Assembly (NCBI GenBank): GCA_026986775.1
Contig: JALSNX010000001.1
Location: forward strand, 124,001-188,000
DNA: 64,000 bases
Direction: 5' to 3'
Source: Caldifarciminota bacterium
Lineage (GTDB): Bacteria; Hydrothermota; Hydrothermia; UBA1063; CAJXJZ01
Under the pieces are notes generated by a model. It made no database searches. It had not been told where the DNA came from and saw nothing but the letters and a program-made list of their open reading frames with translations. The stretch's first letter is position 1. Every line of letters starts with the position of its first letter. This document shows, piece by piece, positions 16,168 through 51,561 of this stretch. A program made the translations under genes and the position numbers.

Positions 16168-16335
16168 GTGTCACAAACCTCACATACGACCAAAACCCCG
16201 GGGGTTTGTGACACCGTGAAAAATAATATCTTACGCATTATACTTGACAATTCAGATTTCATGGGGTATAATTTTCAGCGTTTCGTGAAATATGACTGTT
16301 TGGTCTAAAATATTGATTTTGAATAACATAAATGG
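16168..16335 (+). promoter_or_regulatory. CRISPR leader 1 with inverted repeat and promoter
   Basis: This is the leader of array 1, nearly identical to leader 2 at 19721-19890 (a handful of differences). It contains a perfect 12-base inverted repeat (GTGTCACAAACC at 16168-16179 and GGTTTGTGACAC at 16203-16214). It also has a consensus promoter, TTGACA at 16244-16249 and TATAAT at 16267-16272 with 17-base spacing, pointing into the array. It ends with AATAACATAAAT just before the first repeat, a motif also present before array 3. Confidence 0.85.
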
Positions 16336-17146
16336 GTTGCAGCGTAACTACGAGGAATGGAAACTATTACTACTCCAGAGAACTGGATTTGGTGATACCT
16401 CGTTGCAGCGTAACTACGAGGAATGGAAACTGATATACCTGATACTTGCTCTTTCTTATATAATAGGTTGCAGCGTAACTACGAGGAATGGAAACTTACG
16501 AGTCAGCACTTTCACATCACCATGCAAGCATGTTGCAGCGTAACTACGAGGAATGGAAACGTTTCCGTCCTCATCTGGGAATACCAGCACTGCGACTCCG
16601 TTGCAGCGTAACTACGAGGAATGGAAACTATACAAATTTTCATCATATCGTAGTTCTCTGTCTATGTTGCAGCGTAACTACGAGGAATGGAAACTACGAA
16701 TTGTGATAACCCTAATATTCTCCATTACCACGTTGCAGCGTAACTACGAGGAATGGAAACGCGGAAGTAAACAGCATACATACAAAAGTGCCGATAGGTT
16801 GCAGCGTAACTACGAGGAATGGAAACAGTTCATTATGCGCGAGAATCGTTTTTACTTTTATTGTTGCAGCGTAACTACGAGGAATGGAAACGGATTATCT
16901 GATTGTAGAAATATCATTCCAGTATAGTTGCAGCGTAACTACGAGGAATGGAAACACCGCCACTATTCTACCATCCTCGTCCCGTATGACACGTTGCAGC
17001 GTAACTACGAGGAATGGAAACATATAAATGGGGAAATAAACTTTCTTACTTGTATACCGTTGCAGCGTAACTACGAGGAATGGAAACGTTAATGCTTCTA
17101 TAATGGAATCTATGTCAGAATAGGTTGCAGCGTAACTACGAGGAAT
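16336..17146 (+). CRISPR. CRISPR array 1: 13 repeats, 12 spacers
   Basis: Twelve 29-base repeats (GTTGCAGCGTAAC...GGAATGGAAAC) and a truncated thirteenth at 17124-17146. Spacers are 35-39 bases. Repeats start at 16336, 16402, 16467, 16532, 16600, 16666, 16732, 16798, 16863, 16927, 16993, 17059 and 17124. The last copy diverges after GGAAT, which marks the trailer end, so transcription and new-spacer addition are at the left. The final eight repeat bases, ATGGAAAC, are the expected crRNA 5' handle. Confidence 0.98.
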
Positions 17147-17166
17147 CCCCGCCCCCCACAAAATAC

Positions 17167-17195
17167 TTGTTTTACCGCATAATGGGCGTTATAAT
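17167..17195 (+). promoter_or_regulatory. Promoter of the first cas6 operon (leaderless)
   Basis: TTGTTT at 17167-17172, 17-base spacer, TATAAT at 17190-17195, then exactly seven bases before the cas6 ATG at 17203. The same geometry occurs at the second cas6 (22710-22746). Confidence 0.6.
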
Positions 17196-17202
17196 CAGGA
17201 AA

Positions 17203-17958
17203 ATGCGGATTAAGGTTAGACTTAATGCCGAAAAACCCATAATATTACCCGTACACTACAATTACATCATTCAGGGTTTTATATATCATCATCTTGACCC
17301 TGTAATAAGGAATATTCTCCATGAAAGGGGTGTTCCTTACAGAAAGAGACAGTATAAACTCTTCACCTTCTCCCAGATTTTCCCTGCAAAAATCACAGGA
17401 GAAGAAAATAACTGGATAATGCAGCCCCCTCTGGACTTTTACATATCAGCCTATGATGAGAAAATCCTTGAAAATTTTGCACTTCACCTTGTTCGCAAAA
17501 AGGTTGTTCAGATGGGGACGAACACTCTTACAGTTGAATCCATATCCGCCATTATCCCACCTGATTACAGGGAGAATCTTTTTATCAAAACCCTATCACC
17601 CATAACCATTCATTCAACAGAGATAAAGAATGGTAAAAGACATACCCGGTACTATTCGCCCCATGAATTGGAGTTCCCCGAAAAACTGAGGGAGAATCTG
17701 AGGAGAAAATTTGTTGCCATACACGGCGTTTATCCTGAAGAGAAAGAGGATTTTCTTAAAATAGAGCCGGTGGAGGTTCCCCAAAGGCCAGCGGTGATTC
17801 GCTACAAGGGTTTTGTAATAGTGGGCTGGAAAGGGTTATATAAACTCACCACCTCCCCTGCATATTTTAAACTTTCCTATACCACAGGCCTTGGTTCCCG
17901 CAATAGTATAGGGTTTGGCATGTGGAAGCCTGTTACAAAGTATCCTGCTTCAGGATGA
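17203..17958 (+). CDS. cas6: Cas6 crRNA endoribonuclease (first copy)
   Basis: A 251-aa RAMP nuclease that cuts the repeat RNA and leaves the 8-base handle. The start at MRIKVRLNAEKP matches the second Cas6 (MRLKITFESESP); longer starts at 17125 or 17182 fall in the array remnant. Shared features with the second copy are the PVHYNYIIQGFIYHHLD region, LHERGVPYRKRQYKLFTFS, and the C-terminal glycine-rich loop YTTGLGSRNSIGFGM, the typical RAMP signature. It heads a cas6-cas4-cas1-cas2 operon between arrays 1 and 2. The stop overlaps cas4 by four bases. Confidence 0.92.
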   Translation: MRIKVRLNAEKPIILPVHYNYIIQGFIYHHLDPVIRNILHERGVPYRKRQYKLFTFSQIFPAKITGEENNWIMQPPLDFYISAYDEKILENFALHLVRKKVVQMGTNTLTVESISAIIPPDYRENLFIKTLSPITIHSTEIKNGKRHTRYYSPHELEFPEKLRENLRRKFVAIHGVYPEEKEDFLKIEPVEVPQRPAVIRYKGFVIVGWKGLYKLTTSPAYFKLSYTTGLGSRNSIGFGMWKPVTKYPASG

Positions 17959-18488
17959 TAAGGATTTCATACCTCACTCCATCAATCTTCGCTTCATATT
18001 TTATCTGCCACAGACAGGCATGGCTCTTATATAACGGTATTTCGCCATACCAGAATCATCCCCTGCTTGAAGAAGGTAAATCAATTCACATGGTCCACCA
18101 TCTTGCCAGGAAAAGCGGACACATCTCTATTGAGAACATGATAATTGATGCAATGAGAAGAGACATCATCATTGAAATCAAAAAATCTTCACGCCGGATT
18201 TTTCCGGCAAAAATGCAGCTTTTATTTGAACTTTTCTACTTAAAGCATGAAAAGGGGATAATAAAAGAAGGGCTTTTACTTATACCAGAGGAGAAAAAGA
18301 GCCTCAAAATCCAGTTAACAGAGGAAAATGAGGCATATATCAGGAGAAAAATAAACGAAGTTATAAATCTTGTAAACAGAACCTCACCCCCTCGCATAAG
18401 AAGGAAACATGTGTGCAAATCCTGTTCCTTTTATACCTTCTGTTTCGGGGAGGATATTCATGAGGAGGACAATTTACATACTTTCTGA
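17955..18488 (+). CDS. cas4: Cas4 exonuclease (first copy)
   Basis: A 177-aa RecB-family Fe-S nuclease that trims prespacers for Cas1-Cas2. The ATG at 17955 overlaps the cas6 stop (ATGA), preferred over 17922. The first cluster cysteine is in FICHRQAWLLYNG, the last three in CKSCSFYTFC near the C-terminus. The nuclease core reads MIIDAMRRDIIIEIKKSSR (Asp and E-x-K). It overlaps cas1 by 29 bases. The second Cas4 (45581-46078) has the same layout. Confidence 0.92.
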   Translation: MIRISYLTPSIFASYFICHRQAWLLYNGISPYQNHPLLEEGKSIHMVHHLARKSGHISIENMIIDAMRRDIIIEIKKSSRRIFPAKMQLLFELFYLKHEKGIIKEGLLLIPEEKKSLKIQLTEENEAYIRRKINEVINLVNRTSPPRIRRKHVCKSCSFYTFCFGEDIHEEDNLHTF

Positions 18489-19457: not shown

Positions 19458-19721
19458 ATGTATGTGATTCTGGTGTACGATGTGAAAATTGAGAGAATAA
19501 ACAAAGTCAGGAACCTTGCAAGACAGTATCTTAACTGGATACAGAACTCAGTATTTGAGGGAGAGTTAACAAAAGGGCAATTAAGGATACTTAAACACGA
19601 GATAAAAAAGATAATCAACGAGGAAGAGGACTCGGTTATCATTTATGCACTGACGTGCGAAAAGGAGCCTGAGAGGATTATTATAGGAAAAGAAAAAGGA
19701 ACTCTGGATGACTACCTTTAG
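19458..19721 (+). CDS. cas2: Cas2 (first copy)
   Basis: An 87-aa ferredoxin-like Cas2 starting MYVILVYDVKIERINKVR, with the conserved Asp after the first strand and YLNWIQNSVFEGELT. It is followed directly by leader 2; the stop codon shares its last base with the inverted repeat of the leader. The Cas2 dimer bridges two Cas1 dimers during spacer integration. Confidence 0.95.
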   Translation: MYVILVYDVKIERINKVRNLARQYLNWIQNSVFEGELTKGQLRILKHEIKKIINEEEDSVIIYALTCEKEPERIIIGKEKGTLDDYL

Positions 19722-22709: not shown

Positions 22710-22738
22710 TTGACTTTTGAGATTATATGGTTTATAAT
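22710..22738 (+). promoter_or_regulatory. Promoter of the second cas6 (leaderless), probably for the Cmr/Csm operon
   Basis: TTGACT at 22710-22715, 17-base spacer, TATAAT at 22733-22738; the cas6 ATG at 22746 is seven bases after the -10 box. No other good promoter was seen before csx15, so this may drive about 16 kb of effector genes. Confidence 0.75.
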
Positions 22739-22745: not shown

Positions 22746-23513
22746 ATGAGGCTCAAAATCACATTTGAATCGGAGAGCCCGATAAAAATCCCCATCCATT
22801 ACAATTATTATGTCCAGTCCTTCATCTACAGAAACCTTGACCGGGTGCTGGCACAGAATCTTCACGATGAGGGAATACCTCTTGGAAAAAGAAGATACAG
22901 GTTTTTCACCTTTTCCCGTTTATTCTCACAGAAAAGGAAGAAAAACGGCACATCATGGATATTTTCGCCGCCACTTGAATTATACCTTTCAGCAAGAGAC
23001 ATAAATCTACTTGAGAGTTTTGCAACGCATCTTATAAAACAACACAATGTAAAACTTGCAAAGGCAACGCTTTTCATAAACTCCATAGAGGTAATAAAAC
23101 CACCTGAATACGCAAAAGAACTTATAGTAAGGGCACTTTCACCAATTACCGTTTATTCAACCCTTCTCACACCAGAAGGCAGAAAGAAAACCTATTACTA
23201 CAACCCATTTGAAAAAGAGTTTGAAGAGCTTTTAAGGGATAATTTGAGAAGAAAATTCAAGGCCATATACAGCATACCACCTGACGAAGAAGATGACATT
23301 TTTAAAATAGAGCCATTGAGAGTCTCAGCAAGAAATGAGGCGATAATAAAATACAAAGGGACGGTAATAAAAGGATGGACAGGGATTTACAAACTCAAAA
23401 TTTCAGAAAAATACTTTGACATAGCCTACAACACAGGCCTCGGCTCCAAAAACAGCCAGGGGTTTGGTATGGTGGAGGTGGTGAGGGAGAGGAAAGATGG
23501 AGAGGGTAGATAA
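22746..23513 (+). CDS. cas6: Cas6 crRNA endoribonuclease (second copy)
   Basis: A 255-aa Cas6 paralogous to the one at 17203. The start MRLKITFESESPIKIPIHYNYY lies at the predicted transcription start; longer starts fall in the promoter. It has the same LHDEGIPLGKRRYRFFTFS segment and the RAMP glycine loop YNTGLGSKNSQGFGM. It precedes the III-B and III-A genes and is the only Cas6 in the effector run; none lies in the I-B set. It may therefore serve array 3 for all effectors. Confidence 0.92.
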   Translation: MRLKITFESESPIKIPIHYNYYVQSFIYRNLDRVLAQNLHDEGIPLGKRRYRFFTFSRLFSQKRKKNGTSWIFSPPLELYLSARDINLLESFATHLIKQHNVKLAKATLFINSIEVIKPPEYAKELIVRALSPITVYSTLLTPEGRKKTYYYNPFEKEFEELLRDNLRRKFKAIYSIPPDEEDDIFKIEPLRVSARNEAIIKYKGTVIKGWTGIYKLKISEKYFDIAYNTGLGSKNSQGFGMVEVVRERKDGEGR

Positions 23514-34537: not shown

Positions 34538-34554
34538 GCCTCTGGAGGTATCAT

Positions 34555-36899: not shown

Positions 36900-37029
36900 T
36901 AAGGCGTGGAATTATTGAAGTTAGGGAATGGGATCCATAACACGGTTACCTTATGTTTAAATTGTTAATGGGAACAAAGTCAATTAAAATTAAAGGTGCT
37001 GGGTTTAATTTTTGAACATGATAGGAGAT

Positions 37030-37234: not shown

Positions 37235-38593
37235 ATGAGAATACTTGTCGCTCCATGGGGCTGGCCAAAAAATTATGGAAAATCTAAATATCGTATTGGT
37301 GAGAAATTGATACCATCCAAGACATCAACTGGAGCCTTGAAAAAATATTTTAAGCCAGACCATACATTTGTCATTGTGCAGGATAGCCTTGCAGTATATT
37401 ATCCTGAAACTTTTGAAGCTGAAAACTACCTCAAATTATCCCAATCCCTGCGCAATTTTTTGATAAACGACTATTTTTCAAATGAGGAATTCCTGCCCGA
37501 CTTTAGTCCTAAGGTTGACAAGATTTTGATAGCCCCCAATGTTGGAAGTTTTACAAACAGAGACAAAAATAAACCAGCAAAATTAACCATTAAAGGCAAA
37601 ATGAGTGACTATTACTACTGGGCGTTATACAACCTTTCTCGTTTAATTATTGACAAAAGCATTCAGACGGATGAACTTACACTTATTCTTGACACCACTC
37701 ACGGACAAAATTTTATGCTTTACCTCACATTTTCGGCTCTATACAACATTGCTGCGATACTTTCCTTGAAATTTACGAACAAAATCAAACTTGAAATTTA
37801 CAATGCAGACCCTTATCTGGAAGAGGCCACTTACCTTGAGATAAACCTTGTCAGGGAACTTTACCCAAAATTTCAGATGACTTTGAAGTTCAGTCCACAT
37901 GGATTTTTGCCGCTAAAAGTCAATAAAAGCACGGTCAGTCAGGAGGAGCTGAAAAAACTCTCAAAAGAAATTCAGAGTTCTTTTCGAACAAACGAGAAAC
38001 TATATAAAGAAACTTTTCTCCCGTTTCTTGGTGCCTTCACTCAGGGAATTGTTCATGGAGTAATGCATTTCTTTCCGCCTGATACAGATGATCTGGAGGA
38101 TACAATTTGTGAATTTTACAACAAGAAAATCCAGCTTATTCCTCAGGGCGAGAATCATTCGATGGTAGTCTCAAGAAGACTGTATTTTACGGAGTTTTTT
38201 GAAGCTTTGATATATGTCCGCAACCTGAGAACGGTTATGGAATCCATTGGTATTCGTAAGAAAGAAGAGGTGAGCCTGGCAGAGATTCGCCAGTGGGCAG
38301 AAGAGCTTTATGAGGAGTTTCCGGTAGTTCATGCAAGAACCCTGTATGAATTGGATGACCTTAAAAGGAAGATAATTCCCCAAAAAGTTATTTCTGAATT
38401 TAATGAGTGGAAATCCTATGGTAAGTGCGTGGCAGGGATAAACATTCATAAGCGTAACTTTTTTGCTCATGCCGGATTTTCGGAAAATTCAATTGAAGTT
38501 AAAAAATTGGACAACGATTTTCAAATCAGGTTTTGTAAGCATGCTATGAGCATCATTTTGAATTACTTAAAAGAAACCGTGAGTAAATCTTAG
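37235..38593 (+). CDS. csx1: Csx1-type CARF-HEPN ribonuclease
   Basis: A 452-aa type III accessory effector. The CARF part starts ILVAPWGWPKNYGKSKYRIG and has LDTTHGQNFM at residues 152-161, the ligand-binding signature of this branch. The HEPN active site is R-N-F-F-A-H (Arg407, His412). On binding cyclic oligoadenylate made by Cas10, such proteins cut RNA non-specifically. A GGAGG site precedes the ATG. It probably serves both Cas10 proteins of the locus. Confidence 0.92.
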   Translation: MRILVAPWGWPKNYGKSKYRIGEKLIPSKTSTGALKKYFKPDHTFVIVQDSLAVYYPETFEAENYLKLSQSLRNFLINDYFSNEEFLPDFSPKVDKILIAPNVGSFTNRDKNKPAKLTIKGKMSDYYYWALYNLSRLIIDKSIQTDELTLILDTTHGQNFMLYLTFSALYNIAAILSLKFTNKIKLEIYNADPYLEEATYLEINLVRELYPKFQMTLKFSPHGFLPLKVNKSTVSQEELKKLSKEIQSSFRTNEKLYKETFLPFLGAFTQGIVHGVMHFFPPDTDDLEDTICEFYNKKIQLIPQGENHSMVVSRRLYFTEFFEALIYVRNLRTVMESIGIRKKEEVSLAEIRQWAEELYEEFPVVHARTLYELDDLKRKIIPQKVISEFNEWKSYGKCVAGINIHKRNFFAHAGFSENSIEVKKLDNDFQIRFCKHAMSIILNYLKETVSKS

Positions 38594-39023: not shown

Positions 39024-39046
39024 TAACTAATACAGGAGTTTAGGGG

Positions 39047-39145
39047 GTGAAGACAAACGCTATAGATTCAGATAAACTCCAATTCACAGGCAACTGGTTT
39101 ATAAACTTGGGAATATTGGTTTTTGTGAATTTAATGGAGGATTGA
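39047..39145 (+). CDS. 32-aa ORF resembling the N-terminus of a Cst1/Cas8b1-type protein
   Basis: A GTG start eight bases after AGGAG (39034-39038). The product contains QFTGNWFINLGILVFVNLME, close to the beginning of CXXC-CXXC type Cas8b1/Cst1 proteins (…DWF-x-NAGI-x-GF…). It ends three bases before the cas8b ATG, inside the cas8b ribosome site. It looks like the surviving head of a replaced cas8 gene, or a tiny coupled peptide. The similarity is by memory of the family pattern. Confidence 0.5.
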   Translation: MKTNAIDSDKLQFTGNWFINLGILVFVNLMED

Positions 39146-39147
39146 GC

Positions 39148-40890
39148 ATGATAGCAACACTTATTCAAATCGGTAAAGCCATGAGAGACGCCTATCCCAT
39201 GCCATTTGTTGAAGTTCCTTACAAAGGAGTTAGAGAGAGCATGGATGAGCCTAAAGTAATTGTAGTAGAATTAGATAATCGTGAAGGGAGTCTAAGCCTT
39301 AAAAAGATTTATCTGGCTGACTACAGTGTCGAAGATGCCAAAAACAAATATTTTTTCAGGTCCGGGAAATCTAAAGGGGCCGCACCGACTTTGAGCTTTA
39401 AATTACCTCCGAAATCTTCTACACTTAGAGAGCGACTTAAGGTTTTAAATAATCTTGGTTATAGATCAAATGAGGAAGAGTTGTCAATTCGAATAGAGGA
39501 ATTTGCTGACAGATTAAGGAAAGAAAAAGCTATTGGGAAGAATGTACTGGTGGTTTTGAAAATTGATGGGAAATGGCCTTCTGAAAACGAGAGGCTGGTA
39601 ACGGGTTTTATAGAAGAAACTTTGAGAAATCTTGGTGACAATAAATTCCGCAAATTCTGGAAAGTTGAGTCTATCTGTCATGGCTGTGGTCAAAAAAAGA
39701 TAGTTTATGGTGGAGTGGGGGATCTGTTGAAGTTTTATACTGTAGATAAGTATGGATACGCACCTTCATTAAATCCCAAGTATGCATGGAAACAGTATGG
39801 TTTGTGTAAAGAGTGTATACTTGACCTTGAAAGAGGAAAAAGGACAGTAGATGAGTTTCTGAAGTGGAATTTCTATGGAAAAGAGTTCTGGCTGTTACCT
39901 GTATCAACAGGGAATCTAAGAACGACACTTGAAGAATTCAAAAATTTTTATTCTGAAATAAAAGGGAGAGCTCACAAAGAAGGGTATGAGTCTATCGAGG
40001 ACAGATTGATTTACGAAGCCTCGGTCAGGGAAGAGGTAACTTTTTACCATTTTGTGTTTGTGAAAGCTGAAAATCAAGCATTTAGAATTCTCTTACATAT
40101 AGAAGAAGTTCTTCCCTCAGTGCTTGCGCAGTATGTTTACACAAAGAGAGAAGTTGAAGATGATTTCAATAGCTTTCTCCACGAATTTATTAACGATAAG
40201 GAAGGCTTCAGGTTTAATTTCTTTACATCATCAGATTTAAAGGCTACGAAGCAAAAAACCGGTTTCACAGATGAGGACTTTTTTATGCTTGTTGATAAAG
40301 TTTTCAGGCGCTCGCCTGTGGATGAGAGATATTTGATTTCAAAGGCTATATCCCGAATAAGCAAGGACATGGCTGAGGCAGGCGAACATGCCAGGATTCC
40401 ACGGTGGTCAGTTCTTGAAACCCTGCTATCGCTTGAGTTTTTGCTTAAATGGGGCATACTTAAAAGAAAAACTGGAGGTGTTGAGATGAGCAGTTTACCA
40501 TATGCAGAATTTTTTGAGAGGCATGGTGACTTCTTTAATCATCCGGCAAAAAGGGCGCTTGTCTTGCTCGGCGTGATCGTACAAAAGTTTTTGAACTATC
40601 AATACAAAGAGCGCAATTCAACGCCATTTATGAAGGTCCTGAAAAATCTCCGTCTTGACCAGAAGGATGTGCACTCAATCTTTACCGCCCTACAGAACAA
40701 GATGAACGAATACGGGATTGGACACTGGTGGCCTGAACTCCGTGAAGGGATAAGTTTATATTTTATTGAGGGTGGCGATAAATGGCCTCTATCCCCTGAC
40801 GAAATCGGATTCTACATCGCAGTGGGAATGTCTCTCCATTCGCATCCAATCTTTGGAAGAAGCGAAGAAGGAAAATCTGATAATGAATGA
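39148..40890 (+). CDS. cas8b: Cas8b, TM1802 type (type I-B large subunit)
   Basis: A 580-aa protein. The ATG at 39148 follows GGAGG. The start IATLIQIGKAMRDAYPMPF and the general layout match the TM1802 branch of Cas8b. A zinc-finger is suggested by CHGCGQKK and CKECILDLERGK near residues 177-225. Cas8b recognises the PAM and the crRNA handle in Cascade. It is followed not by cas7 but by an MNT/HEPN pair; the stop overlaps the MNT start by eight bases. Confidence 0.85.
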   Translation: MIATLIQIGKAMRDAYPMPFVEVPYKGVRESMDEPKVIVVELDNREGSLSLKKIYLADYSVEDAKNKYFFRSGKSKGAAPTLSFKLPPKSSTLRERLKVLNNLGYRSNEEELSIRIEEFADRLRKEKAIGKNVLVVLKIDGKWPSENERLVTGFIEETLRNLGDNKFRKFWKVESICHGCGQKKIVYGGVGDLLKFYTVDKYGYAPSLNPKYAWKQYGLCKECILDLERGKRTVDEFLKWNFYGKEFWLLPVSTGNLRTTLEEFKNFYSEIKGRAHKEGYESIEDRLIYEASVREEVTFYHFVFVKAENQAFRILLHIEEVLPSVLAQYVYTKREVEDDFNSFLHEFINDKEGFRFNFFTSSDLKATKQKTGFTDEDFFMLVDKVFRRSPVDERYLISKAISRISKDMAEAGEHARIPRWSVLETLLSLEFLLKWGILKRKTGGVEMSSLPYAEFFERHGDFFNHPAKRALVLLGVIVQKFLNYQYKERNSTPFMKVLKNLRLDQKDVHSIFTALQNKMNEYGIGHWWPELREGISLYFIEGGDKWPLSPDEIGFYIAVGMSLHSHPIFGRSEEGKSDNE

Positions 40891-41212: not shown

Positions 41213-41463
41213 ACGAAGACGATGTAAAAAAATGGATTTTCAAGGCAGAAAACGATTTTGTCATTGACGAACTAACCGATTACGCCATCAATGTCAGATA
41301 CGGCGATGAATTTTACTTTCCTTCTGTTGAGGAGGCCAAAGAAGCTTTGAGGCTTGCGGAGATTACCAGAAATTTTGTCCTGAATGCATTTAAAAAACTG
41401 GGGGTCAGTTTTGATCCCGAAAAGATTTTGAAGGAGGTGCGTGATGAGCTATCTCAAAAATAG
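41209..41463 (+). CDS. Shortened HEPN-domain protein (toxin partner of MNT)
   Basis: An 84-aa protein. The N-terminus VKKWIFKAENDF and the C-terminal LTDYAINVRYGDEFYFPSVEEAKEAL are those of a PF05168 HEPN protein, usually about 130 aa. The roughly 50 residues normally between them (the QAAEKYLKALL-type helices) are absent without a frame break. The toxin fold should be damaged. It overlaps cas7 by 20 bases. Confidence 0.75.
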   Translation: MNEDDVKKWIFKAENDFVIDELTDYAINVRYGDEFYFPSVEEAKEALRLAEITRNFVLNAFKKLGVSFDPEKILKEVRDELSQK

Positions 41464-42460
41464 GTCAGAGTTTTTGTTTCTCTACGATGTCAGGGACGCC
41501 AACCCCAACGGCGATCCGATTGACGAAAACAAACCAAGAATAGATGAAGAAACTGGCCAGGTGCTAGTTACCGATGTGAGACTGAAGAGAACGATAAGGG
41601 ATTACCTTTTGAAGTTAATAAGCAACAATGATGTTCGCCTCAAAGGACAGGATATATTCGTTAAAGAAGTTAGAGACGAAGAAGGCTATCTTTACGATGC
41701 TAAAACTCGTGCAAAAGAATTCGTTGGAGATAAAGAAGGTAAATTCCATGAACTTAAAGAAACTGTCAGAAAAGAAGTAACAAATCAGTGTATAGATGTG
41801 AGATTATTCGGTGCTGTAATTCCTATTGAATTTAAGGTAAAAGGAAAAGAAAAACCTGAGACAGGTTCAGTAATAATGACTGGTCCGGTTCAATTTCGAT
41901 TTGGGCGTTCTTTGCATAGAATTGAGCTGAATTTCATTAAAGGCACTGGAGCTTTTGCTGACAAGTATGACGAAAAAAACAAAAAAGCCCAATTCACTTT
42001 CCGCGAAGAATGGATTGTGCCTTATGCCCTAATCGCATTTCACGGTGTAGCCAACGAGTATGCCGCCCAGACCACACATCTCACGGAAGACGACCTCAAT
42101 CTCATGGTTGAAGCTATGTGGAATGGGACAAAGGACCTGATTACCCGCAGCAAATTTGGCCAGATGCCAAGACTACTCCTCAGAATCGTTTACAAAGAAG
42201 GGGCGGACTTTTACATTGGCGAACTCGACAAACTGGTCAAATGGGTGCCGGAGAACGGCCTTCGCGAAGAGCAGGTAAGAGACATCACACAGGGAACCCT
42301 TGAGGTTGAAGAGCTTTTGAAAGCCTTAGAAAAGCACAGGGACAGGATTGATCGTGTGGAGATCGCAATTCACGAACGCCTCAAGACAAATCCTGAACTC
42401 GTGGAAGCCCTAAAAGCCAAACTCGGTGAAGAAAAAATCAAACTGCTTCCACTATCATGA
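41444..42460 (+). CDS. cas7: Cas7 (type I-B backbone, Csh2/TM1801 type)
   Basis: A 338-aa Cascade backbone subunit. The start SYLKNRSEFLFLYDVRDANPNGDP with PRIDEETGQVLVTDVRLKRTIRDYL is the hallmark of Csh2. RLFGAVIP and QFRFGRSLHRIEL follow. ATG 41444 has GGAGG upstream. It overlaps cas5 by four bases. Confidence 0.94.
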   Translation: MSYLKNRSEFLFLYDVRDANPNGDPIDENKPRIDEETGQVLVTDVRLKRTIRDYLLKLISNNDVRLKGQDIFVKEVRDEEGYLYDAKTRAKEFVGDKEGKFHELKETVRKEVTNQCIDVRLFGAVIPIEFKVKGKEKPETGSVIMTGPVQFRFGRSLHRIELNFIKGTGAFADKYDEKNKKAQFTFREEWIVPYALIAFHGVANEYAAQTTHLTEDDLNLMVEAMWNGTKDLITRSKFGQMPRLLLRIVYKEGADFYIGELDKLVKWVPENGLREEQVRDITQGTLEVEELLKALEKHRDRIDRVEIAIHERLKTNPELVEALKAKLGEEKIKLLPLS

Positions 42461-43209
42461 GAGTAATTTCCTTTAAAATCTGGGGCGATTATGCCCACTT
42501 CAGGCGGCACTACACGACAAGTTCGCCGCTTACCCATTCCATTCCGCCTCCGAGCGCACTGCGCGGGCTTGTGGGGGCTATTATGGGTTTTTCACGGGAG
42601 GAATATCCACAAAAACTCGCTCCAGATATAGCATTTTTTGGAGTCAGACTACTTCGTCCTGTTAAAAAAATCAGGCTGGGTATGAATTACATGGACACCA
42701 AAGACGGGAGCTGGACGCAGCTTGACTTGAAGAAATTCCGTCCCATAGTGAAGAAAGATGGTCACGGCAATCCGAGACTACATACGCAGATTCGCATGGA
42801 GTTACTGAAGGACCCGGCATTTGAGATATTCTTTCATCACGAGGATGACAGTCTGATGGATGAGCTTTCAGAGAGGCTGAAAAGACATCAAACAGTTTAC
42901 ACGCTCTATCTTGGCATCACGGAATGTATTACAAACTTCAAATTTTTGTGGGATGAAAATGTCAATCGGTTTCACGGGGTTTCAAATGTCCTTAGTGCCT
43001 TCAAACTGAGCGCTCTTAAAGGATTCAAGCTTAAAATGGGCATGGGTGTGGTCAAGGAAGCCCTGCCCCTGTTCATCGATTCACAGCGAATTCGGCAGAA
43101 CGGAGAAGAAGTTGTTTTCAACCCGTTTGCACAGCCCTTGAGAGCCGAGATTGAGGGTGCGTTCGTATATCCGGGAAGAACTGATGAAACCTTTGCGTTT
43201 GTGGGATGA
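42457..43209 (+). CDS. cas5: Cas5 (type I-B)
   Basis: A 250-aa RAMP protein binding the crRNA handle in Cascade. VISFKIWGDYAHFRRHYTTSSPLTHSIPPPSALRGLVGAIMG is a typical Cas5 N-terminus (only key parts cited: KIWGDYAHFRR and PPSALRGLVGAI). It overlaps cas7 and cas3 by four bases each. Confidence 0.92.
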   Translation: MRVISFKIWGDYAHFRRHYTTSSPLTHSIPPPSALRGLVGAIMGFSREEYPQKLAPDIAFFGVRLLRPVKKIRLGMNYMDTKDGSWTQLDLKKFRPIVKKDGHGNPRLHTQIRMELLKDPAFEIFFHHEDDSLMDELSERLKRHQTVYTLYLGITECITNFKFLWDENVNRFHGVSNVLSAFKLSALKGFKLKMGMGVVKEALPLFIDSQRIRQNGEEVVFNPFAQPLRAEIEGAFVYPGRTDETFAFVG

Positions 43210-45584
43210 TAGGGGTATTGGAATCACATCCCGGTATCCAACTTAAAACCCATCTCCTGGAAGTTGAAAGGCGAATAAAGGCATTCTGTGAGGATTTACA
43301 GGTTGACGAGGTATTTCAGGAAACAGCCCGTTTAACCGCACTTACCCACGACCTCGGCAAGACCACAGGTTACTTCCAGGACCATCTCAAAGGCAGGCAT
43401 GTCAACCCATCCCTTTCATCTCATGCACTGCTTTCGGCCGTTCTTGCAGTGTGGCATTTTTCAGAAAGCGTTCCGATCTGCATGAAGCTACCTCTTTTCC
43501 TATCCGTCAGAACACACCACTCCAACCTCTCCCAGCTTTCTGCCATGACATACCCAAAACACGAGTGGAAATATCTTGAAAAACAGGTTCAATCCATCGA
43601 TATTGAAGCATTTTTTAACCTTCTGGCAGATCTTGGACTTTCCAATCCTGAAAGCGGTGAACTTCTCCCTGCCTTTCAGGATTTTGCGATCAATTTCTCA
43701 TGGCAAATAGACCAGTGCAGGGGCATTGATATTTACTTCACAACCAACCTCCTTTTAGGTATGCTTGTTGATGCTGATATTCGGGCGGTTATCGGGATGG
43801 ATGCAAATGAAGAACGAGTTGAAATTCCAGACAACATCGTTGACAGTTATATTACAACACTTCCGCAAAAATCAGAGATGGCCACATTAAGACAGGAGTT
43901 CTATAAAACCGTTATAAATAACATTCTGAGGCTGGGTCCTGATAATAAATTTTTGTCTATCACCGCTCCCACAGGTATAGGTAAAACACTCACCGGATTT
44001 TCAGCTGCTGTTCATCTGCGTAACTTGATTCAAAATGTGACTGGAAAAATTCCAAGAATTATATATGTCCTGCCTTTTACAAGCATAATTGATCAGAATT
44101 TTGACGTCATTGAAAAGGTAATTGAGAATTACGGCCTTTCAAAGGAAATAATCCTAAAACATCATTTCCGCTCAAGCCCTGTAAAGAACTATTCTGACTT
44201 TAAAGTGGAGGACATCTGGGAATACCTTGAAGAAAAACATATTTTTAAGAATCCTGATGCTGGAAAATTATTAAAAAAATATGAACAGGCTCATAATCGT
44301 ATAGAAACATGGGACGGCGAGATTATTGTAACTACATTCGTTCGATTTTATGAAACGCTTTTTACAAACAAACGTTCCGAAATGAGAAGATTACACAGAC
44401 TCGCTGGCAGTATTGTCATTCTGGATGAGGTTCAAAATATCCCGGCAGAATACTGGGAAGGGACAGAAAAAGCGCTTAAATTTCTCGCTGATAAATGGGA
44501 TACTCGGTTTATTCTTATGACAGCAACTCGTCCCGCCCTCCTCCAGGATGCGGTGGAACTCACTCAACCCAAAAAGGAGATATTTTTCAGTAAACTTTCA
44601 AGAACATCTCTTAAGATTTATACAGAACCTGTGTCATATACAGAGGTTGACTCATGGCTTTTACCCAATGTGGAATCAGCGAAGAACTTTATGGTTGTTA
44701 TGAACACTGTTCGTTCAGCCCAGGATGTTTACAACCATGTTAAAAAGGCTTTAAGCAGCGAATTTGAACTTTATTTTCTATCCGCCTCACTCATTCCAAA
44801 ACATAGAGAAAAGCGAATTAAAGAAATAAGCGAGAAATTAAGGAATGGCAAGCATTTGGGCCTGATAGCCACTCAGGTAGTGGAAGCAGGTGTTGACCTT
44901 GATTTTGATGTTGTTATCAGAGATTTTGCCCCGCTTGATTCAGTTGTTCAGGCTGCCGGAAGATGTAACAGAAATGCGGCTTCTGAAACAGGTGGCAGGG
45001 TTTTTCTTGTTAAACTTGTCAACCCGATACCCGGGGAAAGACAACTTGCTTCATACATCTATGATGGAGTTCTTCTAAATACCACCGAAGAGATAATTAA
45101 ACATTTAAATGAACTCTCCGAAAAAGACTATTTCAAACTCGTTGAGCGATACTTTCACGAGATTCGTAATGAGGGGAGAAAAGCACAGGATAGGAATCTG
45201 CTTGAGAGTGTAGAATTTTTAAAATACGATGAACTTGGAATGTTTAGTTTAATCAAAAAAGGATTTGAACAGGTTCCCGTTTTTGTGGAGTTTGATTGTG
45301 ATGCTACATATCTAATTTGTAAGTTAAAAGAAATTGAGCGCCTTCCTGTAAAGTCTTACAGTGACCGTATGAATCGAAGATCTATATTCAGGACTATTTC
45401 TTCTGAGATCTGGGGTTATGTAGTTAATGTCCCACTACAGGTTGCCCTTGCAGCTGGCCTGGATACACTTCCCTATGCTTCAAGCTTTTTATGGCTGCGA
45501 AAAGAATTACCGAATTTTAAAAATATTTATCGGGAAGATACAGGTTTCGTGCGGAAAATAGAGCATGAAGCATTTTTCTTATGA
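43206..45584 (+). CDS. cas3: Cas3 nuclease-helicase (HD plus DExH fused)
   Basis: A 792-aa effector nuclease. The HD domain has THDLGK at residues 47-52 and SSHALLSAVLAVWHF. The helicase has Walker A APTGIGKT (257-264), motif II DEVQ (407-410, where DEAH or DEVH is more usual), TATRPALL, and motif VI VQAAGRCNRN. All catalytic motifs needed for DNA unwinding and cutting are present. It overlaps cas5 and cas4 by four bases. Confidence 0.94.
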   Translation: MIGVLESHPGIQLKTHLLEVERRIKAFCEDLQVDEVFQETARLTALTHDLGKTTGYFQDHLKGRHVNPSLSSHALLSAVLAVWHFSESVPICMKLPLFLSVRTHHSNLSQLSAMTYPKHEWKYLEKQVQSIDIEAFFNLLADLGLSNPESGELLPAFQDFAINFSWQIDQCRGIDIYFTTNLLLGMLVDADIRAVIGMDANEERVEIPDNIVDSYITTLPQKSEMATLRQEFYKTVINNILRLGPDNKFLSITAPTGIGKTLTGFSAAVHLRNLIQNVTGKIPRIIYVLPFTSIIDQNFDVIEKVIENYGLSKEIILKHHFRSSPVKNYSDFKVEDIWEYLEEKHIFKNPDAGKLLKKYEQAHNRIETWDGEIIVTTFVRFYETLFTNKRSEMRRLHRLAGSIVILDEVQNIPAEYWEGTEKALKFLADKWDTRFILMTATRPALLQDAVELTQPKKEIFFSKLSRTSLKIYTEPVSYTEVDSWLLPNVESAKNFMVVMNTVRSAQDVYNHVKKALSSEFELYFLSASLIPKHREKRIKEISEKLRNGKHLGLIATQVVEAGVDLDFDVVIRDFAPLDSVVQAAGRCNRNAASETGGRVFLVKLVNPIPGERQLASYIYDGVLLNTTEEIIKHLNELSEKDYFKLVERYFHEIRNEGRKAQDRNLLESVEFLKYDELGMFSLIKKGFEQVPVFVEFDCDATYLICKLKEIERLPVKSYSDRMNRRSIFRTISSEIWGYVVNVPLQVALAAGLDTLPYASSFLWLRKELPNFKNIYREDTGFVRKIEHEAFFL

Positions 45585-46078
45585 AATTCATTAACGCTTA
45601 CATCTTCCAATCATACCTGACATGTCCCCGTGAGGCGTGGCTTGAATACCATTCTATAAATGCAGAGCAGAATCATGAATTTCTTATGCTTGGCAGGCTT
45701 ATTCACGAAACTACCTACAAAAGGGACAGAAAAGAGATATTTATTGACCAGCTTCTTAAGATAGACCTTGTTCACGGAGAACTCGTTGCTGAAGTTAAAA
45801 AATCATCAAGGCATAAAGAGGCCGCCAGAATGCAGCTTCTTTACTACCTTTACTATCTAAAACACGAAAAAGGGCTTGAATTTCAGGGAATGCTTCTTTT
45901 TCCAAAAGAGCGAAGAAGGGAAGAGGTAAAACTTACTAAGGAGGCAGAGGAAAAAATTGAGCAGATTTTACAAAAAATTCAGAGTTTGGTTGAGAGTCCT
46001 GCACCACCACCTGTAAAGAAGATAAAATACTGCAAAACATGTGCATTTTATGATTACTGCTTTGCTGAGGAGGAGTAA
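45581..46078 (+). CDS. cas4: Cas4 exonuclease (second copy)
   Basis: A 165-aa RecB-type Fe-S nuclease. Cysteine 1 is in YLTCPREAWLEYH and the last three in CKTCAFYDYC. The core VHGELVAEVKKSSRHKEAARMQL is intact. It is part of the I-B adaptation set and clearly paralogous to the copy at 17955. Confidence 0.94.
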   Translation: MKFINAYIFQSYLTCPREAWLEYHSINAEQNHEFLMLGRLIHETTYKRDRKEIFIDQLLKIDLVHGELVAEVKKSSRHKEAARMQLLYYLYYLKHEKGLEFQGMLLFPKERRREEVKLTKEAEEKIEQILQKIQSLVESPAPPPVKKIKYCKTCAFYDYCFAEEE

Positions 46079-47074
46079 ATGAAAAAGGCAATTTATGTAT
46101 TTTCCAGTGGAACAATTAAAAGAAAGCAAAACACCATATTCTTTCAATCAGAGGACGGAGCGAAAAAATATATTCCTGTAGAGAATACTCGTGAGTTTTA
46201 CATTTTCGGAGAGGTCACAATCAACAAGAAACTCCTTGAATTCTTCTCACAGAAGGAAATACTCTTACATTTTTTCAATTATCACGGCTACTATGTGGGC
46301 ACATACTATCCAAGAGAACATTACAATTCGGGACTTGTCACATTAAAACAGGCAGAACACTATTTAGACGAAGAAAAAAGGATGTATCTTGCCCGAATGT
46401 TCGTAAAAGGAGCAGCGGACAATATCATCAAGGTGCTAAAATACTATGACACAAGAGGGATAGACTTAAAAGACCCCATAGAGAGAATAGAGCATTTAAA
46501 ATCAACAATCCAGAACCAGAATACCCCTGAGGAACTTATGGCAATAGAGGGGAATATAAGAGACCTGTATTACGGCACATTTGATACGATAATACAAAAC
46601 CCCGACTTCAGTTTTCAGCAAAGGACAAGAAGGCCACCTCAAAACAGGTTAAATGCACTCATAAGCTTTGGCAATCAACTTTTGTATGTGGCAGTTTTGG
46701 GTGAAATTTACAGAACCCACCTTGACCCACGCATAGGGTATCTGCACTCCACAAATCAACGAAGGTTTACTTTAAACCTTGATGTGGCGGAAATATTCAA
46801 ACCCGTTATAGTTGACAGGCTCATTTTAAGTTTACTCAATAAGAAAATCATCAGAAAAGAGCATTTTGATGCAAGGCTTGGGGGCATTATTCTAAAAGAA
46901 AACGGCAGGAAACTGTTTTTAAAAGAATGGGATACCAGAATGCAAACCACAATAAAGCACAAAGGGCTTGGAAGGTCTGTATCTTATCAGAGGCTTATAA
47001 GGCTTGAACTCTATAAACTTGAAAAACATTTCATAGAAGGAAGACCCTACAAACCATATCTGATGAAGTATTAA
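46079..47074 (+). CDS. cas1: Cas1 integrase (second copy)
   Basis: A 331-aa Cas1, same length as the first copy and similar along its length. Catalytic residues are in AIEGNIRDLYY (Glu), GYLHSTNQRRF (His) and LNLDVAEIFKP (Asp). RTRRPPQNRLNALISFGNQLLY is conserved between copies. It starts directly at the cas4 stop. Confidence 0.96.
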   Translation: MKKAIYVFSSGTIKRKQNTIFFQSEDGAKKYIPVENTREFYIFGEVTINKKLLEFFSQKEILLHFFNYHGYYVGTYYPREHYNSGLVTLKQAEHYLDEEKRMYLARMFVKGAADNIIKVLKYYDTRGIDLKDPIERIEHLKSTIQNQNTPEELMAIEGNIRDLYYGTFDTIIQNPDFSFQQRTRRPPQNRLNALISFGNQLLYVAVLGEIYRTHLDPRIGYLHSTNQRRFTLNLDVAEIFKPVIVDRLILSLLNKKIIRKEHFDARLGGIILKENGRKLFLKEWDTRMQTTIKHKGLGRSVSYQRLIRLELYKLEKHFIEGRPYKPYLMKY

Positions 47075-47076
47075 AA

Positions 47077-47340
47077 ATGTATGTGATAATGGTTTATGAC
47101 ATCAAAGAAGAGCGGGTCAACAGGGTTTTAAAAACTGCCCGCAAATATCTAACATGGGTGCAGAATTCTGTGCTTGAAGGGGAAATTACAGGTGCACGGC
47201 TTGAAAGTTTAAAGGCAGAACTTAAGGAAATAATAAAAGAGGATGAAGACTCCGTAATATTTTACAAATTAAGGACGACAAAATATTTCCAGAAGGAGAT
47301 AATAGGGCAGGAGAAGGGTGGAGAGGAAGTGTTTTTGTAG
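47077..47340 (+). CDS. cas2: Cas2 (second copy)
   Basis: An 87-aa Cas2 with MYVIMVYDIKEERVNRVLK and YLTWVQNSVLEGEIT. It is homologous to the first copy and two bases after cas1. The leader of array 3 follows. Confidence 0.95.
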   Translation: MYVIMVYDIKEERVNRVLKTARKYLTWVQNSVLEGEITGARLESLKAELKEIIKEDEDSVIFYKLRTTKYFQKEIIGQEKGGEEVFL

Positions 47341-47630
47341 AATTTTAAGAAAGAACTGTGAAAGTTGTAGAGAATAGAGCATCTGCAGGGGAAATGTTTG
47401 TATTAAGGTAGATGCTAAATTCAAAAAACTTTTGCCATAGGTTCATGAAGGAAATTTTCTTTTTACTTCAACCATCGGTAGAGTAAAAATCACGGGGGTA
47501 CGAAGTAAACATAAAATTTCACAGAAACCTTGACAGTTCACGGAACCTGCCTCAAACTATTAAAAGTAGCATGGTGATAATTGTTCTTTGATAAAAAGTG
47601 CAAATAATTGGGGAACAATAACATAAATTG
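47341..47630 (+). promoter_or_regulatory. Leader of array 3
   Basis: A 290-base AT-rich stretch with no gene, between cas2 and the first repeat. It ends with AATAACATAAATTG before the repeat, sharing the AATAACATAAAT motif with leaders 1 and 2; the rest does not look alike. A TTGACA occurs at about 47533 but no clear -10 box at the right distance; TGATAAT near 47577 is another candidate. Confidence 0.75.
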
Positions 47631-50600
47631 GTTCTGAGCCTACCTAAAAGGGATGGAAACGCGAATGCAGGCACTCCAAACGCTGACATGGTCATTGGTT
47701 CTGAGCCTACCTAAAAGGGATGGAAACACTTTTACTCCGTTGATGAGGTCAACGAGTGCATCCGCGTTCTGAGCCTACCTAAAAGGGATGGAAACGTTTT
47801 TGCGCCTCAAGCGTCCTGCCAGTGGAAACAAGTTCTGAGCCTACCTAAAAGGGATGGAAACCATATAGTTAATCTCTATTCTACCTTTTCTCCGGCGTTC
47901 TGAGCCTACCTAAAAGGGATGGAAACTCAATATGTTTCTTGGTGCGTTTTATCATTTGCAGGTTCTGAGCCTACCTAAAAGGGATGGAAACCTGGTCCCG
48001 CTGCTTCCATACATAGTTACGACCTTTTGTTCTGAGCCTACCTAAAAGGGATGGAAACGGTCTTCCTGCCCTCCAGTAATAGAACCAACAGCATCGTTCT
48101 GAGCCTACCTAAAAGGGATGGAAACGTCTTCAAGGTTGGAGTAAAATAAAAACTGTAAACATGTTCTGAGCCTACCTAAAAGGGATGGAAACCACTTTTG
48201 ATGAATAATTCTTTTAATTCTGCGTATTCAGTTCTGAGCCTACCTAAAAGGGATGGAAACTCTTCTAAAGTATTCAAAAAGTAAGTCAATCAGAACAGCG
48301 TTCTGAGCCTACCTAAAAGGGATGGAAACCTCGGTGGTTCACTTCCTGCTTTTCTGGTAAAGGGGTTCTGAGCCTACCTAAAAGGGATGGAAACACCCTT
48401 CTGCCACATAAGAGTCTGTGGCCCTCACAGGTTCTGAGCCTACCTAAAAGGGATGGAAACTAGTCAAAGACTGGAATGGAGAGCAGAACGAGAAGTGGTT
48501 CTGAGCCTACCTAAAAGGGATGGAAACCTGTAAAAGTGTGCGATAAACTCACCTTTGCGGTCAGTTCTGAGCCTACCTAAAAGGGATGGAAACTGATACA
48601 CAAAGTGTAAAAACTTATAATGATGGAGTGTTCTGAGCCTACCTAAAAGGGATGGAAACCAGACAGGCGGCCGCAGTACTCTACCTATGGGCCGCGTTCT
48701 GAGCCTACCTAAAAGGGATGGAAACTTTTTTGAACCTTTTGGTCTGCCCCTTTTTCTTTTTTGTTCTGAGCCTACCTAAAAGGGATGGAAACTTTAAAAT
48801 GGGGGTATAAAATGGGAAAAAATAAAGAACAGGTTCTGAGCCTACCTAAAAGGGATGGAAACAACTGTAAATAAACAAGGAGGGAAAGATGAACAAGGAG
48901 TTCTGAGCCTACCTAAAAGGGATGGAAACTAGGCTCTGCATTAAGATACTCCTGCATTTTTAGAGGTTCTGAGCCTACCTAAAAGGGATGGAAACTTTTG
49001 ACAAAATATCTACTGCCCGCAAAATGTCTGAAGTTCTGAGCCTACCTAAAAGGGATGGAAACAATGCCTTGACTTTCGCTATTGCTACAATTCCAGAGTG
49101 TTCTGAGCCTACCTAAAAGGGATGGAAACTATCCAGGGAAGGCTGAGTGTTTTTTCCCGGCAACAGGTTCTGAGCCTACCTAAAAGGGATGGAAACCTTG
49201 AAGAAGGCGCCCGTATGGTTCTTGAAAAATATGAGGTTCTGAGCCTACCTAAAAGGGATGGAAACCCAGAAACCGTCTATACAGCCCCGAACGACACAGA
49301 CACGTTCTGAGCCTACCTAAAAGGGATGGAAACTCTGGCAAACCCAGTGCTGCAAGTGCATCTTTTTTGCGTTCTGAGCCTACCTAAAAGGGATGGAAAC
49401 CACAATCTTATTGGTGATTGGAAAGAGCAAATAGGGTTCTGAGCCTACCTAAAAGGGATGGAAACCCTTGTGGCATGGACTACGCCTTACAACGCAGCAG
49501 GTTGTTCTGAGCCTACCTAAAAGGGATGGAAACCAAGATACCCCACGCCCATTTTAGAATAGAACTCCGTTCTGAGCCTACCTAAAAGGGATGGAAACCA
49601 GGATAGGACTTGGAATTTTAGGTTTAAAAAAGAAGTTCTGAGCCTACCTAAAAGGGATGGAAACAATGAATATTATCAGGGTCATAAATGTTTACATTTT
49701 CGTTCTGAGCCTACCTAAAAGGGATGGAAACCGATAAATAGAAATGGGGAACTTTTAAATATTGCTGTTCTGAGCCTACCTAAAAGGGATGGAAACCTTT
49801 CCCCTCTTCAAACATAATTTGTATATATCTACGTTCTGAGCCTACCTAAAAGGGATGGAAACAGAAGTCATTTTGTGTTACATCAAAATAGGATTGACGT
49901 TCTGAGCCTACCTAAAAGGGATGGAAACCTCGATTGATTGGTCGGGTCGCTGGTGGGGGTATCGTGTTCTGAGCCTACCTAAAAGGGATGGAAACTTCTT
50001 TTCCATATTTTTAAACCCCCTTTAAATAAATGTTCTGAGCCTACCTAAAAGGGATGGAAACAAAAAGATAAAAAATACTATTTAAAAATTAAATCTTAGT
50101 TCTGAGCCTACCTAAAAGGGATGGAAACTTGAAAAATATAGATATGGGTTTTACAAGGTATTCGCCGTTCTGAGCCTACCTAAAAGGGATGGAAACTCAG
50201 AAACAGGACGAGCGATAAGTTCATGGTATCGGGTTCTGAGCCTACCTAAAAGGGATGGAAACTAACTTGCCGGTGCACTGTTTGAAAAACGAAGTACCAG
50301 TTCTGAGCCTACCTAAAAGGGATGGAAACCGAAAAAAACACAGGACAACACAAAGAGCGGAGACGGGTTCTGAGCCTACCTAAAAGGGATGGAAACTACT
50401 TTTGATGAAATAAAATCATATGTTAAAGTGGTGTTCTGAGCCTACCTAAAAGGGATGGAAACTCAATTTTTAATAGATGACCTTGAAAGCATTAAAGAAA
50501 GTTCTGAGCCTACCTAAAAGGGATGGAAACAAGTTTTCCGAAAAGATAAATCCTGCTTACTTTCGTGGTTCTGAGCCTACCTAAAAGGGATGGAAACTCA

Positions 50601-50996
50601 GGTTTTTCATATGTGTACCTGAATCCCTTTGTGGTTCTGAGCCTACCTAAAAGGGATGGAAACTTCTCTTTATTCTTCTGCGGGTTTTCAAGGTCTGCTG
50701 TTCTGAGCCTACCTAAAAGGGATGGAAACTAATATAGGTATGGCAATAATAACAGAGGTAAAGGCGTTCTGAGCCTACCTAAAAGGGATGGAAACCAGGA
50801 TAAATTTTATATTGTGGTAAAGATTTACTATTGTTCTGAGCCTACCTAAAAGGGATGGAAACCAGGATAAATTTTATATTGTGGTAAAGATTTACTATTG
50901 TTCTGAGCCTACCTAAAAGGGATGGAAACCAAAAGCAGGGCTTGAAGATGCAGAGAGGCAATATTTGTTCTGAGCCTACCTAAAAGGGATGGAAAT
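47631..50996 (+). CRISPR. CRISPR array 3: 51 repeats, 50 spacers
   Basis: Fifty-one 30-base repeats (GTTCTGAGCCTAC...AAGGGATGGAAAC), the last at 50967-50996 with its final C changed to T. I counted 50 spacers of about 34-41 bases. Two adjacent spacers near the trailer (50796-50832 and 50863-50899) are identical. The handle ATGGAAAC is the same as in arrays 1 and 2. The leader is at left, next to cas2. The repeat sequence is otherwise unchanged through the array. Confidence 0.98.
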
Positions 50997-51561
50997 GCGA
51001 GTTTTTCACATATATATCAAAATAGGCCCGTGGTTCGGAGCCTACTTAAGGGACAAAAGCAGTATCAATAAGCGGAAGGTGTATCTTTCACAGGACCTTC
51101 TGGGTGGGTTCCTGGAAGCCATGAGGAAATTAAGGGACAATGTGCACTATCTTTGGATGAGGAGCGGGCTATTAAGAATCTATGGCATGAGATCATACAC
51201 GGGCAGACGCCTGTGTATGGGACTCTCAGTATCCAGGAAAAAAATTATTGAAACTTTTGTGGAAATGCTCGCAAGAACCACATATGGTAACTTTATTGAG
51301 TATCTTGGCTACCCGACCACAAGGCTAAAACACGCAAATACACTCCTTTTTGATTCTTACGGTGGTAGAGAAGCAGGAGAATTGATAAGAATTCTCAAGT
51401 CTAATTATGCGGGTGATTTTGACTTGATTATAAGGGCACTCGGGGAAACAATACGGGGTTATCCTGAGTATAAGTGGTTCGATGTGTTTACAAATAAAAT
51501 GGGTGTTATTATTGGTGAAAATAGTGCAAGAGAGGTGTTAAATGAGGCACTTATGCTCTAA
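50989..51561 (+). CDS. ORF starting inside the last repeat; remnant of an unknown gene
   Basis: A 190-aa open frame whose ATG lies in the last CRISPR repeat and whose first 24 residues or so are array sequence, including a decayed repeat. The body looks protein-like: EMLARTTYGNFIEYLGYPTTR, NTLLFDSYGGREAGELIRIL and WFDVFTNKMGVIIGEN. That end vaguely resembles C-terminal domains of polymorphic toxins or DUF6973 proteins, but I cannot name it. It is probably a 5'-truncated gene abutting the array; a true start could be the ATG near 51121. Confidence 0.4.
   Translation: MEMRVFHIYIKIGPWFGAYLRDKSSINKRKVYLSQDLLGGFLEAMRKLRDNVHYLWMRSGLLRIYGMRSYTGRRLCMGLSVSRKKIIETFVEMLARTTYGNFIEYLGYPTTRLKHANTLLFDSYGGREAGELIRILKSNYAGDFDLIIRALGETIRGYPEYKWFDVFTNKMGVIIGENSAREVLNEALML
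51033..51060 (+). repeat. Decayed 52nd repeat of array 3
   Basis: GTTCGGAGCCTACTTAAGGG and following bases match the array 3 repeat with several changes and a two-base deletion. It lies 36 bases, one spacer length, after the last good repeat, marking the true ancestral array end. Confidence 0.8.

What the first reader, a model, noticed from the sequence alone, without database searches (positions are those of the whole stretch)
16168..51060. Three CRISPR effectors and two adaptation modules in one 35-kb island
Complete III-B (cmr1-6), III-A (csm1-5) and I-B (cas8b-7-5-3) gene sets lie in one direction, with two cas6, two cas4, two cas1, two cas2 and 68 spacers. The III-B and III-A sets are separated by three bases and probably share a transcript. 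All catalytic sites I checked (two GGDD, two HD, Cmr4 Asp26, Csm3 Asp36, Cas3) are intact. Such packing suggests a layered DNA- and RNA-targeting defence with shared crRNAs. Individual modules are known; the single-block arrangement is unusual.
Basis: partly seen in the sequence, partly recalled or inferred. Interest (0 to 1): 0.75.

Follow-up and report, generated by a model that had tools for sequence, protein, structure and literature searches.

The report
Mosaic three-effector CRISPR island, WOR-3 bacterium
A bacterium of candidate division WOR-3 carries three well-known kinds of CRISPR immune machine side by side; relatives show that the block was put together by swapping ready-made gene cassettes, and one machine has a broken small-subunit gene, so the gene set is familiar but its assembly history is unusually readable.

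Summary
The island is real. Cmr1-6, csm1-5, cas8b-7-5-3, two cas6, two cas4-cas1-cas2 sets and 68 spacers lie on the + strand, and the checked catalytic residues are present. Corrections: csm2 is frameshifted (33320-33523 / 33525-33743), so III-A is not intact as assembled. Non-cas genes at 20333-22603, three on the minus strand, separate two blocks. 'Unusual single block' is only partly right: Thermotoga maritima scores over the cut-off for all three modules, and the T. maritima locus tags in the family names (TM1791-TM1811) imply one block there. Congeners G003 and G001 carry a III-B/I-B unit without csm, so csm1-5-csx1-csx15 was most likely inserted between cmr6 and cas8b. G033 has a second cmr6-then-csm1 order; G017 has a different type I set after cmr6; G027 shows sharp recombination breakpoints. 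Predicted promoters give one cas6-cmr-csm-csx transcript and a separate I-B transcript. Best reading: a recombination-built island of known modules with cA4 signalling (Csx1, Csx15). crRNA sharing is plausible but untested.

The parts
16168..17152 (+). leader 1 (perfect promoter 16244-16272) and array 1, 12 spacers, repeat GTTGCAGCGTAACTACGAGGAATGGAAAC, last repeat degenerate
17182..17958 (+). cas6a
   Evidence: TIGR01877 3e-38; 49% identical to cas6b
17955..18488 (+). cas4a
   Evidence: TIGR00372
18460..19455 (+). cas1a, I-B type
   Evidence: TIGR03641; 57% to cas1b
19458..19721 (+). cas2a
   Evidence: TIGR01573
19721..20314 (+). leader 2 (96% identical to leader 1 over 145 nt; perfect promoter 19798-19826) and array 2, 6 spacers
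22710..22738 (+). predicted promoter of the cas6b-cmr-csm-csx operon (TTGACT-17-TATAAT, 11 of 12), conserved before cas6 in congener G003
22746..23513 (+). cas6b
   Evidence: TIGR01877
23603..30905 (+). III-B set cmr1 (23603-24481), cmr2 (24474-27449, HD and GGDD), cmr3 (27446-28507), cmr4 (28518-29420), cmr5 (29413-29778), cmr6 (29775-30905)
30909..33305 (+). csm1/cas10, HD and GGDD
   Evidence: TIGR02578 5e-171
33320..33743 (+). csm2, frameshifted: frames 33320-33523 and 33525-33743
33746..36899 (+). csm3 (33746-34537), csm4 (34555-35529), csm5 (35748-36899)
35501..35755 (+). conserved 84-aa ORF between csm4 and csm5, unknown family; 60% identical homolog in the same slot of G029
37012..37143 (+). 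short ORF resembling the start of a nucleotidyltransferase (VFGSFAGG), judged by eye; apparent remnant
37235..38593 (+). csx1, CARF-HEPN ribonuclease, HEPN motif RNFFAH intact
   Evidence: TIGR01897 3e-52, PF22230, PF09455
38604..38984 (+). csx15, cA4 sponge or ring nuclease, conserved His8, His84, Arg119/123/126
   Evidence: NF040560 2e-49; match to csx15 structure 9teu; PMC13148439
38995..39023 (+). perfect consensus promoter ahead of the I-B operon; no such promoter at the cmr6-cas8b joint of G003
39045..39140 (+). short ORF FTGNWFINLGILVFVNLMED, possibly the remnant N-terminus of another cas8-like gene (by eye); shared with G027
39142..40890 (+). cas8b
   Evidence: TIGR02556, TIGR02591
40883..41463 (+). 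MNT (40883-41212) and HEPN (41209-41463) pair between cas8b and cas7; HEPN lacks an internal stretch of about 66 aa present in the G027 homolog
41444..45584 (+). cas7 (41444-42460), cas5 (42457-43209), cas3 (43206-45584)
45581..47340 (+). cas4b, cas1b, cas2b
47341..50996 (+). leader 3 and array 3, 50 spacers, repeat GTTCTGAGCCTACCTAAAAGGGATGGAAAC

Best explanation
This is a multi-effector CRISPR-Cas island assembled by recombination from known cassettes. The older unit of this genus is cas6-cmr1-6-cas8b-7-5-3-4-1-2-array (III-B fused to I-B). In this genome a III-A cassette (csm1-5 with the 84-aa ORF, csx1, csx15) was inserted between cmr6 and cas8b, and a promoter absent from that joint in a congener now precedes the I-B operon. 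Cas6 would make crRNAs carrying the tag AUGGAAAC from all three arrays (inferred). Cmr and, if csm2 can still be made, Csm would sense foreign RNA, cut it, cut DNA with HD and make cA4 with GGDD; Csx1 would degrade RNA and Csx15 would damp the signal (inferred from families). Cas8b-7-5 plus Cas3 would destroy foreign DNA. Shown: gene content, order, intact residues, the broken csm2, and the cassette arrangements in relatives. Inferred: direction of the insertion, transcripts, crRNA sharing, activity.
For: Profile hits for all modules. Congener G003 has cas6-cmr1-6-cas8b-7-5-3-4-1-2 with about 27 bp between cmr6 and cas8b and no csm, csx1 or csx15; G001 has cmr6-cas8b too. G033 carries cmr4-5-6, one ORF, an MNT-HEPN-like pair, then csm1. 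G017 carries cas6-cmr1-6 followed by another type I set (cas7 = Cst2) and cas4-1-2-array. G029 carries csm4-84aa-csm5-csx1-csx15 in order. G027 (another family) holds pieces 88-98% identical to csm1, csm3, csm5, csx15, cas8b and HEPN with breakpoints near 32900 in csm1 and 41600 in cas7. Promoters.
Against: All genomes used for comparison are fragmented or binned assemblies; G027 pieces sit on short contigs and could be misbinned. csm2 is frameshifted, so a working III-A complex is doubtful unless it is a sequencing error. No RNA, protein or crRNA data exist here. Spacers found no target. Insertion rather than loss of csm in congeners is parsimony from few genomes.
Confidence: 0.72

Rival explanations
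1. The III-A module is decaying: the frameshifted csm2 inactivates Csm, the cassette is a passenger in the cmr transcript, and only III-B and I-B work.
For: csm2 in two frames while homologs in L030, L036, L040 and L041 are single frames; other decay nearby: nucleotidyltransferase remnant, deleted HEPN, short cas8-like ORF.
Against: csm1, csm3, csm4 and csm5 are full length with intact sites; a one-base error in the assembly, or frameshifting, cannot be excluded.
Confidence: 0.35
2. The three effectors are functionally integrated: one cas6-cmr-csm transcript and identical 8-nt crRNA tags let all arrays feed all complexes, giving a layered RNA/DNA defence with one cA4 response.
For: 3-bp joint, SD inside cmr6, no internal promoter; both repeats end ATGGAAAC; III-A and III-B share arrays in Thermus thermophilus HB27 (PMC10989782); P. 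furiosus runs three effectors (PMC7192623).
Against: I-B has its own consensus promoter; two cas6 genes (49% identical) may be repeat-specific; csm2 is broken; nothing on expression.
Confidence: 0.45
3. The block is an assembly chimera of separate loci.
For: The genome is a 30-contig assembly and no reads were examined; binned relatives split these modules among contigs.
Against: Congeners show the same cas6-cmr and cas8b-cas2 order, G033 shows cmr6 upstream of csm1, and both joints are gene-exact with ribosome sites.
Confidence: 0.04

Closest known systems
Thermotoga maritima CRISPR block (family names carry tags TM1791, TM1794, TM1795, TM1802, TM1807, TM1809, TM1810, TM1811)
   Same: Carries cmr, csm and cas8b (TM1802 family) modules; the control rings for Cmr2, Csm1 and Cas8b profiles there, and the consecutive locus tags imply a single block.
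   Different: The T. maritima locus itself was not fetched; from memory I-B lies between cmr and csm there. Here cmr and csm are directly joined and I-B follows.
WOR-3 congener G003 (III-B/I-B fused unit)
   Same: cas6-cmr1-6-cas8b-7-5-3-4-1-2-array in the same order, 46-78% protein identity.
   Different: No csm, csx1, csx15, MNT or HEPN; no consensus promoter before cas8b.
Thermus thermophilus HB27 I-B, I-C, III-A, III-B (PMC10989782)
   Same: Coexisting I-B, III-A and III-B; III-A and III-B use the same arrays.
   Different: I-B has its own repeat there and a I-C system is present; whether the modules form one block was not checked.
Chlorobaculum limnaeum III-A locus with Csx15 (PMC13148439)
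   Same: Type III-A locus carrying the cA4-binding Csx15.
   Different: No fused III-B or I-B is described in the passages read.

Membership tests
type III-B (Cmr) | cmr1-6 with Cas10/Cmr2 | tested here: met
   TIGR01894, 02577, 01888, 02580, 01881, 01898 all over cut-off
type III-B (Cmr) | catalytic HD and GGDD in Cmr2, Asp26 in Cmr4 | tested here: met
   motifs present; Cmr4 Asp26 aligned with Cmr4 structures 4wnz and 4rdp
type III-A (Csm) | csm1-csm5 gene set | tested here: inconclusive
   csm1, 3, 4, 5 over cut-off; csm2 frameshifted, second half matches TIGR01870
type III-A (Csm) | HD and GGDD in Csm1, catalytic Asp in Csm3 | tested here: met
type I-B | cas8b, cas7, cas5, cas3 with cas6 | tested here: met
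   TIGR02556, 02591, 02590, 02592; Cas3 helicase and HD models
cOA-signalling type III | CARF effector with intact HEPN motif and a cOA-removing partner gene | tested here: met
   Csx1 RNFFAH motif; Csx15 family match and conserved His and Arg
cOA-signalling type III | cA4 is made and activates Csx1 | not testable with these tools
   needs enzyme assays
HEPN-MNT toxin-antitoxin | MNT nucleotidyltransferase next to a full HEPN toxin | tested here: not met
   MNT intact (PF18765) but HEPN lacks about 66 internal residues present in the G027 homolog
shared crRNA pool | same crRNAs bound by the three complexes | not testable with these tools
   only the shared tag ATGGAAAC is shown

The most novel reading that the evidence does not exclude
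The 3' end of cmr6 is a standing docking joint for module exchange in WOR-3, and the fused cas6-cmr-csm operon makes a mixed type III machine in which Cmr5 stands in for the broken small subunit Csm2, so that two Cas10 enzymes share parts and crRNAs.
Probability: 0.06. Interest if true: 0.75.

Novelty: new member of a known kind. Interest (0 to 1): 0.35.

Why it matters
The modules and the co-location of III-B, III-A and I-B are known, so this is not a new kind of immunity. What it adds is a readable record of module exchange in one bacterial class: a III-B/I-B unit, a III-A cassette apparently added at one joint, type I sets and ancillary effectors swapped in the same slots, with breakpoints locatable to tens of bases. 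It offers a test of whether stacked type III systems share transcripts and crRNAs.

Tried and rejected
Spacer targets: 32 spacers against 50,697 phage records gave no match; exact scans of three leader-proximal spacers and one repeat in viral contigs gave none; no self-targets inside the window outside the arrays. Rfam and tRNA scans were empty. The 84-aa ORF matched no Pfam, NCBIfam or PADLOC family and its model is too poor to use (pLDDT 54). The short ORF before cas8b matched no family; its cas8-like reading is by eye. Programmed +1 frameshifting at csm2 (ACT TGA) was considered and not favoured: homologs have one frame and the slip would pair poorly. Searches for a paper on the T. maritima locus failed, so that precedent rests on family names and control hits. 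The genome-contig scan returned only three csm3 relatives, so frequency outside WOR-3 was not measured.
Full report
What is there. The window is G000:C1:124001-188000 of a 2.18-Mb, 30-contig genome. Its closest annotated relatives are candidate division WOR-3 bins. All claimed cas genes are present and on the + strand. Block A (16168-20314) is leader 1, array 1 (12 spacers), cas6a-cas4a-cas1a-cas2a, leader 2 and array 2 (6 spacers); the two leaders are 96% identical over 145 nt. Between blocks A and B lie non-cas genes, three on the minus strand (20333-22603). Block B (22710-50996) is cas6b, cmr1-6, csm1-5, csx1, csx15, cas8b, MNT, HEPN, cas7-5-3, cas4b-1b-2b and array 3 (50 spacers). Spacer total is 68, two identical.

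csm2 is frameshifted: 33320-33523 then 33525-33743, with only the second half matching TIGR01870. Homologs are single frames. csx1 (CARF-HEPN, motif RNFFAH) and csx15 (cA4 sponge or slow ring nuclease, PMC13148439) make this a cA4-signalling island by gene content. MNT-HEPN sits between cas8b and cas7; the HEPN lacks about 66 internal residues relative to G027. An 84-aa ORF between csm4 and csm5 is 60% conserved in the same slot of G029. Outside the window the genome has a second III-B set with a third cas1-cas2 and a 24-repeat array on C19, and a 77-repeat array with the array-3 repeat and a similar leader on C20, sharing no spacer with array 3.

Active sites. HD and GGDD are present in both Cas10s; Cas3 has HD, Walker A and DExx. 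Cmr4 Asp26 aligns with the Cmr4 structures. Csm3 Asp36 (Asp40 from the upstream start) aligns with the Csm3 structures and is invariant among the three WOR-3 sequences aligned.

Transcription. Perfect TTGACA-N17-TATAAT matches number seven in 64 kb against 0.01 expected. In the island they lie in leaders 1 and 2 and between csx15 and cas8b (38995). An 11-of-12 promoter precedes cas6b and is conserved in G003. None of that strength lies between cmr6 and csm1, and the csm1 Shine-Dalgarno lies inside the end of cmr6. The simplest inference is a 16-kb cas6b-cmr-csm-csx transcript and a separate I-B transcript.

History. Congener G003 has the same unit without csm, csx1, csx15, MNT or HEPN, with cas8b about 27 bp after cmr6; G001 also joins cmr6 to cas8b. 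G017 has cas6-cmr1-6 followed by another type I set (cas7 of Cst2 family) and cas4-1-2-array. G033 has cmr4-5-6, an ORF, an MNT-HEPN-like pair, then csm1. G029 has csm4-84aa-csm5-csx1-csx15. G027, of another family, holds pieces 88-98% identical to the window in csm1, csm3, csm5, csx15, cas8b and HEPN, in a different arrangement: a different gene in the csx1 slot and a 600-aa gene between csm1 and csm2. Identity drops from about 95% to 55% near 32900 in csm1 and from 92-98% to 36% near 41600 in cas7, as recombination would leave. Short G027 contigs leave misbinning possible.

How unusual. Among 147 phylum genomes, no other contig joins all three modules, though many are fragmented. T. maritima rings as a control for Cmr2, Csm1 and Cas8b, and the family names carry tags TM1791 to TM1811, implying one block there; the locus itself was not fetched. 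Coexisting III-A, III-B and I-B with III-A/III-B array sharing is known in T. thermophilus HB27 (PMC10989782). Modular exchange is established for archaea (PMC4390879).

Mechanism. Family knowledge predicts RNA cutting by Cmr4 and Csm3, DNA cutting and cOA synthesis by Cas10, RNA decay by Csx1, damping by Csx15, and DNA destruction by the I-B complex with Cas3. Both repeats end in ATGGAAAC, so tags would be identical; sharing is not shown.

Verdict. An island of familiar parts: a new member of a known kind, with an instructive assembly history and one broken gene.

Noticed in passing
33320-33743: csm2 is frameshifted near 33510; homologs have one frame. Sequencing error, mutation or frameshifting undecided.
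   Followed up: partly
40883-41463; L069, L035, L066: An MNT gene, in most cases with a HEPN partner, recurs between cas8b and cas7 in several WOR-3 genomes, is absent in others, and is internally deleted (HEPN) here.
   Followed up: partly
35501-35755; L104:642-872: Conserved 84-aa protein of no known family between csm4 and csm5.
   Followed up: partly
L101 (G027:C84) 1889-3127: A protein resembling CARF-nuclease effectors (by eye) occupies the slot where csx1 lies in the window, between csm5 and csx15.
   Followed up: no
L040 (G027:C78) 829-2664: A 611-aa gene of no NCBIfam family is inserted between csm1 and csm2.
   Followed up: partly
G000:C19 (L024, L025) and G000:C20 (L107): Second III-B set with cas1-cas2 and a 24-repeat array of a different repeat; separate 77-repeat array with the array-3 repeat.
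   Followed up: partly
window, 7 sites: Perfect TTGACA-17-TATAAT promoters are strongly enriched (7 found, 0.01 expected) and all have 17-bp spacing; some sit so close to a start codon that leaderless transcripts are likely.
   Followed up: no
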